The notes below the pieces were generated by a model that was not told where the DNA came from, did not search any database, and saw nothing but the letters and a program-made list of their open reading frames with translations. A DNA stretch of 25,786 nucleotides from a virus. The DNA is taken from IMG/VR virus record IMGVR_UViG_3300047357_000006, positions 1-25,786 of that record. The stretch is one strand, 5' to 3'. How positions within the stretch are numbered: position 1 is the first letter of the stretch; each line of letters opens with the position of its first letter. The translations under genes were made by a program, and so were the position numbers. Shown piece after piece: positions 16,204-25,786 of the stretch.

Positions 16204-19200
16204 ATGGCTAGAAAACAAGTAGAACGGTTGCGGCCTTCTGCAAGGCTACAAGCTGTAGCTCGTCCAGTAGAGACATATGTACGTCCTGCTGAACAACCTG
16301 CGCCTAAGACTGGTTTGGGTGAGTTTATTCGTGCTATTGCACCAGCAGCTAAAGACTTGGCTCAGCTTGAAAAGCAGAAACAACTTAAGCTTCAGCGAGA
16401 AGCAGAGCAGGGTATTGCCTCTGCACGTACTATGGATGCTAAACTTGGCGTGTCTAGTGCTTTAAGGGCTGCTCAAAAGGATTTTATAAACAACGAACCT
16501 GACTATCTAGAAATGTCTGATGAACAGGTAGCTGCAAGACGTGCTGAAATTATGCAGCCCTTCCTTCAGCAAGCCGAAGACTCAGGTGATGACTTACTAT
16601 TTCAAGCCGTCAAGGGCAACATTGAAATGGGAAACCTTGCGTGGTTTAACAGAGATTATGATCCTGCAAAGTTTAAACATAACTTTACTATTAATATGGG
16701 TAAAGTAGGTAATGAAGTTCTTGGGATTACTTCAGATGTTGGTTATATACCACAGACTGAAGAAGACGGTACTATAGAAGAAAACCGTGCTATCCAGAAA
16801 AAGAACATTGATGAGGTTGTAAGACAGGCTTCACAAGCCTATGGCTACAATCAAACTATGGTTAATGACTATATTATGGAGAAGGTAATTGCTCCTAATG
16901 TAAGAACAGGTGGTAGAAACGCAGCCTATGAGTGGGCAGAGGAGCGTAAGTTCCGTGGTATTCCCCGCTACCAAGCGATGTATAAGACTATAGATAGTGA
17001 CCTTAGGGCTTATGATAAAGAGTTTAAGAAACAGAATGATAATATTCTTTTTACTCAGCAGTTAAATCAAGGTTTTGAAAACTTTGTCTTTGGTGGTTCT
17101 AATAATCAACAGGATTATTTTAGGGGTGAGACATTAACTGGTGCTGGTGGTACTAAACTTGTCATGGATGATGATGAGACAATAGCACGTTTTGAGGCTT
17201 ATGCAGCCAGCCGTGGCTTAAATCAGGATCAATTTGAAGACTTCTTTAAAAAGAATAATCTTCTTCCTTCTAATATGAAGAACAATATTCAGAATGGTAT
17301 TTATGCTTTAAACAGTGGTGATATCATTTCTAATCCTACGGATGCAGCTACTGCTGAGTTAGCCTTTAATAGTATATTCAAAGCACAGGCAATGGGTATA
17401 GATATTCCTACGTCAGTGGTAGATGCGGATCAATTGAAACGCTTTGAGATAGCTAAGATACTTGCTATGAGAACTGCCACTGTAGGTAGTAAGGATGATG
17501 GTACTGTTAATATTGCTAACGCTATGTTCACGGCTCAATCGGCTGACTTAAGTATTGGTGAAACTTTAAGTGCTGCTAATAAAGAGAAACTAGCTAATAC
17601 TATTAGTACTTTCTTAGGCACTGACCACACTGACACAGGTAATGCTAGAGCTAACATCGAAGAACTTTCGCGTATGACAGGGCTGCTTATGCAATTAGAG
17701 GGTGGCTTATCCTTAGAAAACGCAGCTACTATGGCAGCAGAAGCCTTTAAGAAAGATAGTGTAATCTATCAGGCTGCTAATGGTCTGAAGATGTCTTTCC
17801 GACAGCTTAACACTGACCCTAATGTTAGTGCGCCTGTAGCACAAAGATTAACAGACCTTTCTAAAGTAATGAGTGATGATCCAGACATAAAGATTATTAT
17901 GAATGGTGAATTAGGAATGATCGAAAACCCTACTGTTGGTTTTTCTAATGATCGTCTTAAACCTAACGCTGTTAGAGTTGCCATTATGGATGAAAATGGT
18001 TTTCCACATATTTCTCTTGGAGTTGTCAAGAAAGATGATTTGCTTAATGACCCACAAATTGTTGCTAAACTTATAGCAAGTAATAAGAACAAGGTTATCC
18101 TAGCTAAAAAGAAAGCATTTACTGGCGGCTCTCTAGCCCCAGAGGATGATCCTGTTAATGCTCCTATAAATGTTAGTGCAGCATGGGCTAACAATAACTT
18201 AGGTAACTCTGTTACTAGCCTTCCTGATACGTTTAAACCACTAACAGCCCAGCCTATTGTTGTTGATGGTGAGCCTACAGGACAGTACTACTACACAGGT
18301 ATTACAGCAGATGGTTCTAAACCTACTTATGTATCCACTCAGAGTCCAGAGTACATTAAGCCTGAACCTGTAGAGCCACCTGACGTAGTTGAGGATGAGT
18401 CTACGGTAGAAGAACAACAGACTAGCTCGTTAGCTGATGATGCTTTAAACGTGGTAACTAATCTTATTGATAATACCGTTGGAATATCTACAGCTAATGC
18501 TACTGCTACTATCATAGATGATGAGGGTTTCTCTTACACTCCTTATGATGACATGGGTAAAGACTCCGTAGGTCATGGGCTTCAAATTGAATCCCTTGAG
18601 CCTGATGAAAAAGCTTTAATTAGTGATGTAAACAACGTACAGCCAGAGGAATCTGCTGCTGTTGTAGCACTTAAAGTATCTAAGATTGACAACTATTTTA
18701 CTGATGTAGTAGAAGGTTTTCAAAACCTACCAGACACAGCAAAGTCTGGCATGATCCAGATGGGCTATCAGCTAGGTAGATTTAATGTCACTAAGGAGTG
18801 GCCTAAGTTTATGGAGTCAATTAAGGAAGCTGCACAGTATGCTGAAGGTTCTGTAGAACAAGCCTCTGCGCTATTAGAAGCTAAGTTTAATATGCTTTAC
18901 AATGTAGCAGCAGATGGTACTGTTAGTGCTACTAAGTGGGCTACACAGACTAAAGACAGAGCTATGAAAGTAGCTGAAGAGATCATATCAGACGCTGAGT
19001 TACCTTCTATCATACAAGAAGCTGCTGCAAGTACAAGGGCATTTCCTTTACCTAAACCAAAGCCAGAACGAGGAACAGTACTAGATGCTTTAAACGAAAA
19101 AGAAGCATCATCTAACTTTATAGCTGCTCCTTATAAAGCTTTGTTTGCTAACACTTTAGGTAATATGCTAGGTGCAGACTTTGAATTTAGTACTGAGGAT

Positions 19201-19662
19201 ATAGGTGAAGATACGCTAAGTGTAATCAAAACAGCAACAGCTACGGCTGAGGCTAGGGGTTCAAGGAGTGTTGAGTATGGTGACTACCCACTAACTAAGA
19301 GAGGGTTGCCAGTATCAGCAGTTATAGCTAACTTTAAGTCTATTGATGGTACACGCTTATCTAAAGCTGAACGTAAGAAGATGGAAAAAGCAGTTAATGA
19401 TGTCTACCCTAACAATCCAATAGGATTAGCCATGTTTGCTTATGATCTACAAACAGACCCTGTGCTTAAAGCAGCAGGATTTGTGGGCGGTTTCTCTATT
19501 CAAAAGGATAATAGTGGTAGAAAGTTTATTAAGGAAAGATGGAACTTTAATAATAAAAGTACCTCTGAAGGAACTATCTATAAAAAGATGAGAGCTTTCT
19601 TTAGTAACTATGCTCCTATCACAGAAGATGAAGGATCAGAAGTAATTGTTGAATTGAACTAA
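16204..19662 (+). CDS. gp15-like internal core protein with an embedded T4-type lysozyme domain
   Basis: An ejected core protein of 1152 residues, far longer than T7 gp15 (747). Residues 1 to about 740 are helical and gp15-like, with no membrane segment. Residues about 768-930 resemble T4 lysozyme (GH24): Glu774 in IIDDEGFSY, Asp783 nine residues later (the same spacing as T4 Glu11-Asp20), Ser788 where T4 has Thr26, then VGHGL (T4 IGIGHLL), a helix GMIQMGYQLG matching INMVFQMG, and WATQTKDRAMKV matching WYNQTPNRAKRV. These support a working muramidase that opens peptidoglycan during DNA entry. Residues 940-1152 form a further domain, unassigned, containing YGDYPLTKRGLPVSAV and FIKERWNFNNK. 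T7 instead carries its transglycosylase on gp16. Alternative: a separate core protein fused to gp15. The fusion is one uninterrupted frame. Confidence 0.9.
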   Translation: MARKQVERLRPSARLQAVARPVETYVRPAEQPAPKTGLGEFIRAIAPAAKDLAQLEKQKQLKLQREAEQGIASARTMDAKLGVSSALRAAQKDFINNEPDYLEMSDEQVAARRAEIMQPFLQQAEDSGDDLLFQAVKGNIEMGNLAWFNRDYDPAKFKHNFTINMGKVGNEVLGITSDVGYIPQTEEDGTIEENRAIQKKNIDEVVRQASQAYGYNQTMVNDYIMEKVIAPNVRTGGRNAAYEWAEERKFRGIPRYQAMYKTIDSDLRAYDKEFKKQNDNILFTQQLNQGFENFVFGGSNNQQDYFRGETLTGAGGTKLVMDDDETIARFEAYAASRGLNQDQFEDFFKKNNLLPSNMKNNIQNGIYALNSGDIISNPTDAATAELAFNSIFKAQAMGIDIPTSVVDADQLKRFEIAKILAMRTATVGSKDDGTVNIANAMFTAQSADLSIGETLSAANKEKLANTISTFLGTDHTDTGNARANIEELSRMTGLLMQLEGGLSLENAATMAAEAFKKDSVIYQAANGLKMSFRQLNTDPNVSAPVAQRLTDLSKVMSDDPDIKIIMNGELGMIENPTVGFSNDRLKPNAVRVAIMDENGFPHISLGVVKKDDLLNDPQIVAKLIASNKNKVILAKKKAFTGGSLAPEDDPVNAPINVSAAWANNNLGNSVTSLPDTFKPLTAQPIVVDGEPTGQYYYTGITADGSKPTYVSTQSPEYIKPEPVEPPDVVEDESTVEEQQTSSLADDALNVVTNLIDNTVGISTANATATIIDDEGFSYTPYDDMGKDSVGHGLQIESLEPDEKALISDVNNVQPEESAAVVALKVSKIDNYFTDVVEGFQNLPDTAKSGMIQMGYQLGRFNVTKEWPKFMESIKEAAQYAEGSVEQASALLEAKFNMLYNVAADGTVSATKWATQTKDRAMKVAEEIISDAELPSIIQEAAASTRAFPLPKPKPERGTVLDALNEKEASSNFIAAPYKALFANTLGNMLGADFEFSTEDIGEDTLSVIKTATATAEARGSRSVEYGDYPLTKRGLPVSAVIANFKSIDGTRLSKAERKKMEKAVNDVYPNNPIGLAMFAYDLQTDPVLKAAGFVGGFSIQKDNSGRKFIKERWNFNNKSTSEGTIYKKMRAFFSNYAPITEDEGSEVIVELN

Positions 19663-23290: not shown

Positions 23291-24493
23291 ATGGCTTTTT
23301 CATATCATAATTACCAACCAACAAACAATACTACGGATACCTTTAGTATCCCTTTTACATTCACGGCTCAGTCTGAGATTAGTGTAACAGTAGATGGTGT
23401 GGCTCAGACAGGTCTTACTTTTCCTTCTAGCTCTAGCGTACAGCTAACATCCCCTGTTGCATCTGGCTCACTAGTACAGGTCAGACGTACTACTAGTTTG
23501 GCATCACGTGCTATTGACTTTGCCTCTGGCTCAGTCCTGACTGAAGAAGACTTGGATGATAGTAATATTCAGGTCTTCCACGCAGCACAGGAAGCTATTG
23601 ATACTGCTGGTGATTCAATTACACTAACACCTGCCAATCGGTGGGATGCTGGTGGTAGCGTCATCAACAACGTAGGTACACCTGCATCTAATACGGATGC
23701 AGCTACTAAGGCTTACGCTGACGGTATTTCAACCGCAGCAGCGGCAGCAGCGGTTACAGCGGCTAATGCAGCCGTGGCAACAGCAACAGGTAACATCATC
23801 CCTGATGCTACTAAACTAGCTATTCACCCTATTGGCTCACAGTACACACTGTCAGACGGTTCTACTACTGACTACTCAGCTAAACACTATCAGGATGCTG
23901 CATCTACTTCAGCTACTAATGCTGCAACTTCTGAGACTAATGCAGGAACATCTGAGACTAACTCTCAAAACTGGGCAGTTAAGACAGATGGTGAAGCAGT
24001 AACAGGTCAAGGCTACTCAGCCAAGGCTTGGGCTGTTGGTGATTCTGGCGGTGTAAGTAATACTGCTGGTGCTGGTAATGCTAAAGATTGGGCTACTGAA
24101 ACTGCCACTGCTGTAGATGGTTCTGAGTTTTCAGCCAAAGAATATGCAATTGGCTCACAGGCAGCAAACCCCAACGGTTCTGCAAAACAATGGGCTTTAG
24201 GTGGCGGTGCAGGGTTCACAACCAACACTGCTGTTGAGGGTACTAACTACTCAGCTAAGTACTACGCCGAACTCGCTGCCTCTAACTTTGATTCATTTGA
24301 TGATAAATTTCTTGGGGCAAAGAGCAGCCCACCAGCCCTAGACAATGACAATAATGCGTTAATTGACGGTGCTTTGTATTACGACAACGTGGGTAAATAC
24401 CTGTCTGTCTATGACTTAGGCACAACATCGTGGAACCCAATACAAGCTGGCGCATCTGCTGGTTTCGCCATTGCAATGGCAATAGCCCTTTAG
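23291..24493 (+). CDS. Tail fibre protein with a T7 gp17-type N-terminal anchor
   Basis: A 400-residue trimeric fibre component. Residues 1-115 match the T7 tail fibre anchor domain: FSIPFTFTAQSEISVTVDG, then VQVRRTTSLASRAIDFASGSVLTEEDLDDSNIQVFHAAQEA (T7: ...R.T...R...F..GS.L...DL...Q...). Next come GGSVINNVGTPASNTDAATKAY, a short connector seen in many fibres, and an Ala-rich coiled stretch at 145-170. Residues 195-325 contain six SAK/NAK-[YW] units (see the repeat entry). The end (LDNDNNALIDGALYYDNVGKYLSVYD) is a small domain common in marine phage fibres. No receptor-binding tip is present in this protein, so the two following genes probably complete the fibre. Spacing of nine bases follows the gp16-like gene. 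Confidence 0.9.
   Translation: MAFSYHNYQPTNNTTDTFSIPFTFTAQSEISVTVDGVAQTGLTFPSSSSVQLTSPVASGSLVQVRRTTSLASRAIDFASGSVLTEEDLDDSNIQVFHAAQEAIDTAGDSITLTPANRWDAGGSVINNVGTPASNTDAATKAYADGISTAAAAAAVTAANAAVATATGNIIPDATKLAIHPIGSQYTLSDGSTTDYSAKHYQDAASTSATNAATSETNAGTSETNSQNWAVKTDGEAVTGQGYSAKAWAVGDSGGVSNTAGAGNAKDWATETATAVDGSEFSAKEYAIGSQAANPNGSAKQWALGGGAGFTTNTAVEGTNYSAKYYAELAASNFDSFDDKFLGAKSSPPALDNDNNALIDGALYYDNVGKYLSVYDLGTTSWNPIQAGASAGFAIAMAIAL
23876..24265 (+). repeat. Imperfect SAK-[YW] repeats in the tail fibre shaft
   Basis: Six units sharing (S/N)AK followed within one residue by Y or W occur at fibre residues 196, 243, 263, 281, 297 and 321 (DYSAKHY, GYSAKAW, GNAKDW, EFSAKEY, GSAKQW, NYSAKYY). Spacing is 16-47 residues, so they are degenerate at DNA level. 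Such units are typical of fibre shafts and usually build helical or triple-stranded stalk segments; they favour length change by recombination. Confidence 0.75.
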
Positions 24494-24502
24494 GAGTAAT
24501 AA

Positions 24503-25177
24503 ATGGCACAGAATTTTATAAGATACAAATTAACAGGTGTAGGCACAACCGCAGCCGATATTCCGAATGGTTCAGATTTTAATTCCGTAGATGCACTCGT
24601 AGGTATTCATATGACGAATACATCAGCAAATGCAATTACGGTTGATGCTTTTCTAACCAGCGCAGCCCTAGATAGAGGTGCTGGAGATTATTTTAATTAT
24701 GCAGTTACAGTAGCTGGTGGTGTGTTTGTACTAGGTGGTGTAACCAAACCAGCTATTACATTATACAAAGGCTTTACTTATGTGTTTGACCAGTCAGACG
24801 CTACAAACGCTGGTCATACTATTGCCTTCAAAACGGCGGCTGGTGGTTCATCATATACAACTGATGTAACAACTACAGGTACAGCGGGACAAGCTGGTGC
24901 TAAGACCACCATTGTCATATCCGACACTACACCGACATCGTTGTACTATTATTGCACAGCGCATGGTGATGGCATGGGTAACACAGTTGCTATTGATAAC
25001 GCACACTACCTTATCAAAGGCGCACCTATTGCAGCAGGTGGTGCTTTGCAGTTGCTTGATGGCGGCGCAAAGATAGTTGTTGAGTCTGGCGATAGGTTGT
25101 TTGTGAAAAGTTCAAACGTAAGCTCTCTTGATTGTTGGGTAAGTGCGGTTGATGCAATTAGCACCGCAGTAACATAA
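24503..25177 (+). CDS. Tail-associated protein with a nested cupredoxin-like domain
   Basis: A 224-residue protein. The outer part is split: residues 1-60 (DALVGIHMTNTSANAITVDAF) and 166-224 (HYLIKGAPIAAGGALQLLDG, then KIVVESGDRLFVKSS and CWVSAVDAIS) together make one beta-sandwich known as an uninterrupted small protein in other phages. Between them, about 63-163, sits a cupredoxin-like domain: YKGFTYVFDQSDATNAGHTIAF with His105, then GAKTTIVISDT and LYYYCTAHGDGMG with Cys151, His154 and Met158. This is the complete His-Cys-His-Met set of a type-1 copper site, with the CxxHxxxM spacing. Cupredoxin-like domains are recurrent in marine phage tail proteins. The gene sits between two fibre genes, so it is likely part of the tail tip. 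Copper binding is inferred from residues only. Confidence 0.82.
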   Translation: MAQNFIRYKLTGVGTTAADIPNGSDFNSVDALVGIHMTNTSANAITVDAFLTSAALDRGAGDYFNYAVTVAGGVFVLGGVTKPAITLYKGFTYVFDQSDATNAGHTIAFKTAAGGSSYTTDVTTTGTAGQAGAKTTIVISDTTPTSLYYYCTAHGDGMGNTVAIDNAHYLIKGAPIAAGGALQLLDGGAKIVVESGDRLFVKSSNVSSLDCWVSAVDAISTAVT

Positions 25178-25188
25178 GGGAGAGAGAC

Positions 25189-25786
25189 ATGGGTTACATT
25201 GGTAATCAACAAACCGAAGGGTATTCTCAGGCTCCCTCTAAGCAAGACCTGACTGGTGCGACTGGCACTAGCCTGACGCTGTCACACGCTGTAGCCAGCG
25301 CAGAAGGCATTGACCTGTTTATCAATAATGTCCGGCAGGAACCAACCACAGCCTATTCTATTGGGGCTGATGGCGTCACAGTAACGCTCACAGGCTCAGT
25401 GGTAGCGACAGACGATATTTATGTAGTCTACAACTCACTAGCTCTTCAGACATCTACACATCCATCTAACCAAGCCTTGCAAGCAACTAGCGGTTTATTT
25501 TCTGGAACTGTATCTGCTGCATCTGCGACTGTTACTGGTGACTTAACCGTTGACACTAGCACCCTATACGTTGACAGCACTAACAATAACGTGGGCATTG
25601 GGACTGCTTCGCCATCAAGGACACTCACTGTCAATTCTGGTACTACTAACACTGCGTTGCGCTTGGAAGGCACTGACGCAGAAGTCGCTATGCAATTTTA
25701 CGATGGAACCAAAACATCTACTATTTCTGGTGGAACCTCTGGCATAATATTTACTCCAAATACAACGGTTGGAGATGCATTATCCA
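25189..25786 (+). CDS. Tail fibre/adhesin, 5' part (cut by the window end)
   Basis: The ATG at 25189, preceded by GGGAGAGAG, opens a frame to the window edge without a stop (199 codons visible). It begins MGYIGNQQTEGYSQAPSKQDL and continues with a strand-rich anchor domain (LFINNVRQEPTTAYSIGADG, then IYVVYNSLAL). A shaft-like section then contains VTGDLTVDTSTLYVDSTNNN and VGIGTASPSRTLTV, a hallmark of marine phage fibres and of proteins ending in a peptidase-S74-type chaperone domain. The terminal receptor-binding or intramolecular-chaperone domain would lie past the window. It is probably a second fibre subunit that works with the 400-residue fibre and the cupredoxin-like protein. Confidence 0.85.
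   Translation, partial: MGYIGNQQTEGYSQAPSKQDLTGATGTSLTLSHAVASAEGIDLFINNVRQEPTTAYSIGADGVTVTLTGSVVATDDIYVVYNSLALQTSTHPSNQALQATSGLFSGTVSAASATVTGDLTVDTSTLYVDSTNNNVGIGTASPSRTLTVNSGTTNTALRLEGTDAEVAMQFYDGTKTSTISGGTSGIIFTPNTTVGDALS

What the first reader, a model, noticed from the sequence alone, without database searches (positions are those of the whole stretch)
24689..24991. Cupredoxin-like domain with a complete copper ligand set nested in a small tail protein
His105, Cys151, His154 and Met158 form a type-1 copper set inside a domain that interrupts another beta-sandwich fold (residues 1-60 plus 166-224). The inserted block has clean edges, suggesting a mobile domain dropped into a loop. Copper in a tail tip could serve structural stability, redox sensing at the host surface or binding to host metal-acquisition receptors; the last ideas are speculation.
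Basis: partly seen in the sequence, partly recalled or inferred. Interest (0 to 1): 0.7.

Follow-up and report, generated by a model that had tools for sequence, protein, structure and literature searches.

The report
Copper-protein-like domain inserted in phage protein
A small protein, probably part of a marine virus's tail, carries a plastocyanin-like domain inserted into one loop, with the residues normally used to hold copper almost perfectly conserved; the same domain recurs in the tail proteins of many marine phages, which makes a metal-loaded phage tail directly testable.

Summary
ORF 24503-25177 (224 aa) of a T7-like marine podovirus carries His105, Cys151, His154 and Met158 inside a domain (about residues 54-166) that interrupts another fold. 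Uninterrupted orthologues of 108-115 aa are common, with the same neighbour genes. In 136 distinct copies of the domain from many carrier proteins, His105 is 136/136, Cys151 135/135, His154 134/135 (the exception has a His one residue later) and Met158 132/135. AlphaFold models the insert confidently; its structural matches are cupredoxins (nitrite-reductase cupredoxin domain Z 8.9, rusticyanin 8.1, plastocyanin 7.9). A profile alignment to real plastocyanins pairs both His and the Cys. The carrier without the insert models as an 8-strand jelly roll; the insert replaces one hairpin turn. Trees favour one insertion; one orthologue pair shows later exchange of most of the insert. The domain recurs in cyanophage and pelagiphage baseplate and fibre proteins and in lipoproteins of marine archaea and SAR86. 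Ligand distances in the model, copper binding, virion location and function are untested. Best reading: a metal-site-stabilised display module of the tail. The receptor and redox ideas stay speculative.

The parts
24503..25177 (+). Gene of the 224-aa small structural protein with nested domain
   Evidence: ORF and translation; identical or near-identical in L003-L010
24503..24661 (+). N-terminal part of the jelly-roll carrier (residues 1-53)
   Evidence: aligns to uninterrupted 111-aa orthologues; fold
24662..25000 (+). Inserted block (residues 54-166), replaces a hairpin turn of the carrier
   Evidence: absent from the short orthologues
24686..24997 (+). Cupredoxin-fold core (about residues 62-165)
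   Evidence: AF2 model; structural matches to cupredoxins
24815..24817 (+). His105, putative metal ligand
   Evidence: 136/136 copies; pairs with plastocyanin His
24953..24955 (+). Cys151, putative metal ligand
   Evidence: 135/135 copies; pairs with plastocyanin Cys
24962..24964 (+). His154, putative metal ligand
   Evidence: 134/135 copies; pairs with plastocyanin His
24974..24976 (+). Met158, putative axial ligand
   Evidence: 132/135 copies; loop length differs from plastocyanin
25001..25174 (+). C-terminal part of the jelly-roll carrier (residues 167-224)
   Evidence: aligns to uninterrupted orthologues
23291..24493 (+). Upstream neighbour: tail fibre with T7 tail-fibre N-terminal domain (PF03906)
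   Evidence: Pfam E 2.6e-26
25189..25785 (+). Downstream neighbour, 'MGYIGNQ' protein, weak tail-fibre similarity; runs off the window
   Evidence: the same neighbour follows interrupted and uninterrupted forms

Best explanation
The gene encodes a small jelly-roll protein, probably part of the tail-fibre or tail-tip assembly. One hairpin turn of it has been replaced by a cupredoxin-fold domain with a complete His/Cys/His/Met metal site. Shown by computation: nested architecture, existence of the uninterrupted form, predicted fold, conserved ligands, presence of the domain in many other marine phage tail proteins, and one case of exchange of most of the insert between close relatives. Inferred: the site binds copper (possibly another soft metal), the metal mainly locks and stabilises the domain, and the domain's variable surface is displayed outward as an accessory adhesion or decoration module, perhaps three per trimer of the carrier.
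For: Ligands near-invariant across 136 copies in many carriers. Cupredoxin matches for the confidently modelled insert. Profile alignment to plastocyanins scores 24.0 against at most 15.2 in 40 shuffles and pairs both His and the Cys. Uninterrupted orthologues with the same gene order. Carrier is a jelly roll whose best match is a trimeric phage cement protein. Domain occurs in proteins annotated as baseplate and fibre proteins and in lipoproteins of marine archaea and SAR86. Within a near-identical carrier, residues 80-168 differ at 32/87 aa and 16/32 four-fold sites, against 1/107 and 4/45 outside, yet the Cys, His and Met are kept.
Against: No metal, virion or binding data. Foldseek E-values to solved cupredoxins are weak (best 0.003) and no Pfam copper family reaches its cut-off. 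Met is replaced in 3 of 135 copies. The C-x2-H-x3-M spacing differs from that of the plastocyanins compared (x4). Ligand distances in the model were not measured. Placement at the tail rests on gene position and on annotation of other carriers.
Confidence: 0.5

Rival explanations
1. The domain is a beta-sandwich display domain of cupredoxin descent whose conserved Cys, His and Met are structural or bind zinc or nothing; there is no copper role.
For: Sequence searches of solved structures hit Ig domains through the YYC motif. Met is lost in three copies, and one copy has an extra residue between Cys and His. No Pfam copper family passes its cut-off.
Against: Structure comparison lists cupredoxins first, and the two His and the Cys pair with plastocyanin ligands. 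These three residues are among the most conserved positions in very different carriers, which pure packing would not obviously require of exposed His.
Confidence: 0.3
2. The copper site is used functionally at the host surface: redox trigger of ejection, or docking on copper or siderophore uptake receptors, in the manner proposed for iron in phage tails (Ferrojan Horse).
For: Occurs in baseplate and fibre proteins, which contact the host; ligands kept while the rest of the domain is exchanged. Papers discuss iron in phage tails.
Against: No receptor or redox partner is identified; most orthologues of this carrier do without the domain, so it is not required for infection in the group.
Confidence: 0.12
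3. The interrupted form is ancestral and the domain was lost in the many short orthologues.
For: With junction columns left out, the split between the two forms has weak bootstrap support (53/97), so the direction is not firmly fixed by the tree.
Against: More distant relatives (HMO-2011, HTVC104P, Hodr, L302, L308) are uninterrupted and lie outside. The inserts form one clade, 96/92.
Confidence: 0.08

Closest known systems
Plastocyanin/azurin-type cupredoxins (PF00127; plastocyanin 1bxu, rusticyanin, auracyanin A, N-terminal domain of Hyphomicrobium nitrite reductase)
   Same: Predicted fold (Z 7.7-8.9) and paired His, Cys, His.
   Different: Only 13-17% identical to these structures; below Pfam cut-off; different Cys-to-Met loop length; nested in a viral structural protein instead of acting as a free electron carrier; copper not shown.
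Cupredoxin-like domains of cyanophage, pelagiphage and Methylophilales phage tail proteins (PHROGs 30742, 677, 693, 708, 6005, 27200)
   Same: The same domain by sequence, with the same ligands.
   Different: There it sits within or at the end of long baseplate and fibre proteins; here it is inside a hairpin of a small jelly roll. None of the annotations seen names it as a cupredoxin.
Small uninterrupted structural protein of HMO-2011 (phage1322_42), HTVC203P gp43 and relatives
   Same: Orthologous carrier in the same gene order.
   Different: No insert.
Trimeric cement protein of Helicobacter phages KHP40/KHP30 and turret of HFTV1
   Same: Fold of the carrier, Z 9.9 (KHP40) and 8.8 (HFTV1).
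   Different: About 10% identity; head or turret proteins rather than tail; trimerisation of our protein not tested.

Membership tests
Cupredoxin fold (mononuclear type-1 copper domain) | Greek-key beta-sandwich matching solved cupredoxins | tested here: met
   Insert modelled at pLDDT 78-98; best solved-structure matches are cupredoxins, Z up to 8.9 over 95 residues
Cupredoxin fold (mononuclear type-1 copper domain) | His, Cys, His ligands conserved at equivalent places | tested here: met
   Near-invariant in 136 copies and paired with plastocyanin ligands
Cupredoxin fold (mononuclear type-1 copper domain) | Axial Met (or Gln/Leu) at a spacing seen in cupredoxins | tested here: inconclusive
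   Met in 132/135, but x3 spacing here, x2 in part of the family, x4 in the plastocyanins compared
Cupredoxin fold (mononuclear type-1 copper domain) | Ligands within bonding distance of one site | not testable with these tools
   Model coordinates not readable
Cupredoxin fold (mononuclear type-1 copper domain) | Binds copper | not testable with these tools
   Needs purified protein
Pfam PF00127 Copper-bind | Score above the gathering cut-off | tested here: not met
   No match in the window; best copy of the insert family E 0.015
Small uninterrupted structural protein family (HMO-2011 phage1322_42 type) | Both halves of the carrier align, in the same gene order | tested here: met
Trimeric jelly-roll cement/knob proteins | Jelly-roll fold | tested here: met
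   Uninterrupted orthologue modelled at pLDDT 89; KHP40 cement protein Z 9.9
Trimeric jelly-roll cement/knob proteins | Trimer formation | not tested
   No complex prediction was available

The most novel reading that the evidence does not exclude
Marine phage tails are commonly copper-loaded: a cupredoxin-like module, spread through baseplate, fibre and small tail proteins and exchanged by recombination, holds copper and uses it at the host surface (adhesion, redox trigger or docking on copper-uptake receptors).
Probability: 0.15. Interest if true: 0.9.

Novelty: new variant of a known kind. Interest (0 to 1): 0.6.

Why it matters
If the site holds copper, many marine phage tails carry a metal centre that no paper I could find describes, with consequences for virion stability, infection and possibly the marine copper budget. 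Even without a metal function, the locus is a clean natural example of a whole domain entering a hairpin of a viral jelly roll, with intact and interrupted versions side by side in nature, and it gives a likely fold to a domain now labelled only 'tail fiber' or 'unknown'.

Tried and rejected
Pfam and NCBIfam on the protein and on 26 copies of the insert gave nothing above cut-off. PDB sequence searches hit mostly nanobodies and antibodies through the YYC motif; I treat this as motif coincidence because structure comparison puts cupredoxins first. DNA repeats or a composition break at the edges of the insert: one 15-nt imperfect pair (80%) at 24726 and 25029, no inverted repeats, no clear GC step, so no sign of a mobile element. 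Several independent insertions at one site: the inserts form one clade (96/92), so one insertion is preferred. The L013/L016 pair looked like a second exchange (insert 70% DNA identity, outer parts 87-92%), but four-fold sites in the main part of the insert differ 11/35 against 15/53 outside, so I do not claim it. A first attempt to align reference plastocyanins failed on a wrong frame and was redone in a script. With the narrower alignment A2 the profile comparison to plastocyanin was weaker and the first His was off by one; only the broader 136-copy profile pairs it. Literature searches for cupredoxin or plastocyanin-like domains in phage tails found no description; the library is open-access only.

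Full report
What was claimed.

The sequence. ORF 24503-25177 (+) encodes 224 aa. The four residues are at the stated positions. Cys and His are rare in this virus (0.5% and 1.3%); C-x2-H-x(2-4)-M is expected 0.037 times in the 7,227 aa of window proteins tested and occurs once, here. The window is a T7-like podovirus: T7-type helicase-primase, family A polymerase, B12-dependent ribonucleotide reductase, portal, Gp10A-like capsid, a large tail protein (tail tubular protein B by its relatives) and a T7-type tail fibre directly upstream of this gene. Its capsid and tail proteins are at most about 43% identical to isolates, so the host is not known.

The insert is real. A scan of viral contigs with the protein returned three classes: full-length orthologues (L003-L022), the insert alone inside other proteins (most of L023-L055), and orthologues of about 111 aa without it (most of L056-L082). 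The last class matches residues 1 to about 53 and about 167-221 and has a turn such as 'NGGTN' in place of residues 54-166. Gene order is the same with and without the insert: a fibre gene, this gene, then an 'MGYIGNQ'-like gene.

The fold. AlphaFold on 47 aligned sequences models residues 61-165 at pLDDT 78-98, but the outer part poorly, at about 40-66. Solved-structure matches to the insert are cupredoxins: the N-terminal cupredoxin domain of Hyphomicrobium nitrite reductase Z 8.9 (rmsd 2.5 over 95), rusticyanin Z 8.1, small laccases about 8, Synechococcus plastocyanin Z 7.9 over 89 of 91 residues, auracyanin A Z 7.7. These Z values are middling on the tool's own scale, and Foldseek E-values are weak, best 0.003; the case rests on the consistency of the list and on the ligands. 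An uninterrupted orthologue modelled alone gives an 8-strand jelly roll at pLDDT 89, with strands 45-52 and 58-66 joined by the turn that the insert replaces. Its best match is the trimeric cement protein of phage KHP40, Z 9.9 over 102 residues.

The ligands. In 136 distinct copies from many carriers, His105 is 136/136, Cys151 135/135, His154 134/135 and Met158 132/135. The one His154 exception, L229, has a His one residue later. Met158 is Gln in L018 and Lys in L241. The scans used patterns that include the His105 segment but not Cys151, His154 or Met158, so for those copies the last three were not selected for; the scan did include the Cys-His segment. Against real plastocyanin-family proteins from the same collections (cyanophage petE, SAR86, marine group II archaea), the profile alignment scores 24.0, while 40 column-shuffled controls reach at most 15.2, and it pairs His105, Cys151 and His154 with the known ligands; the Met falls in a loop of different length. 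The spacing is C-x2-H-x3-M here, C-x2-H-x2-M in part of the family and C-x2-H-x4-M in the plastocyanins. From memory, x2 is the amicyanin spacing. Distances in the model could not be measured, so clustering is implied, not shown.

Where else the domain occurs. 267 phage records match at E <= 1, nearly all cyanophages, plus pelagiphages and Methylophilales phages, in proteins annotated as baseplate wedge, fibre connector, tail fibre or hypothetical (sequences). In L302-L306, L308-L311, L313, L258 and L267 the small protein is uninterrupted and the gene directly upstream carries the domain; these loci were found with queries that favour this, so their frequency means nothing. In cellular contigs the domain is at the C-terminal end of marine group II archaeal proteins with a lipobox-like start and, in the one scanned (L171), collagen-like repeats, and in SAR86 proteins with a lipobox-like start: probably exported proteins.

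History. In a tree of the carrier, interrupted and uninterrupted rows split once (100/99). When the columns at the junction are left out and distant outgroups are added, the split remains but with weak bootstrap support (53/97); the outgroups are uninterrupted. In a tree of the domain all inserts form one clade (96/92), sister to the copies in a 246-249 aa protein. One insertion is therefore the preferred reading, not a proven one. Later exchange is clear in one case: L282 and L286 differ at 0/53 and 1/54 residues of the two carrier parts and at 4/45 four-fold sites there, but within residues 80-168 at 32/87 residues and 16/32 four-fold sites (Fisher p = 1e-4). Raised synonymous divergence points to import of a diverged allele, not to selection alone. 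Both alleles keep the ligand residues.

How it most likely works. The carrier is probably a trimeric knob or cap of the fibre or tail tip, and the inserted domain stands out from one loop. A conserved metal site under a surface that is exchanged between relatives fits a stabilised display module with a part in host contact. Shown here: architecture, fold by prediction, conservation, exchange. Inferred: copper, virion position, trimer, adhesion. Redox sensing and docking to metal-uptake receptors (compare the Ferrojan Horse papers) have no direct support.

Novelty. No Pfam or NCBIfam model covers the domain above cut-off, PHROGs hold it only within 'tail fiber', 'baseplate', 'virion structural' or unknown families, and no paper in the open library that I found describes a cupredoxin in a phage virion. 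A full-length public relative, 50% identical, exists in BFVD without a name. I file it as a new variant: a known fold in a new setting.

Noticed in passing
L171, L172, L176, L178-L186 (genome contigs, mostly marine group II archaea): Lipoprotein-like proteins, collagen-like repeats in at least L171 and L172, that end in the same cupredoxin-like domain; function unknown.
   Followed up: partly
L169, L173 (SAR86 contigs): Short lipoprotein-like proteins made almost only of this domain: possible cellular source of the phage module, or the reverse.
   Followed up: partly
L276 (ACG-2014d), the 661-aa open frame that holds SYFCRYHGLMG: A second C-x2-H-x2-M copy in another open frame of the same stretch as the gp9-like connector; several cyanophage records hold two or three places.
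   Followed up: no
window 16204-19662: 1152-aa protein in the tail and internal-protein region with no PHROG match at E 0.1.
   Followed up: no
L281/L289 and L013/L016, about 1 kb around the gene: Blocks of 90-100% DNA identity alternate with unalignable stretches upstream and downstream: a mosaic fibre region.
   Followed up: partly
A0A516LVH8 (BFVD): Unnamed 216-aa viral protein, 50% identical over the full length: the same nested architecture is already in public databases.
   Followed up: no
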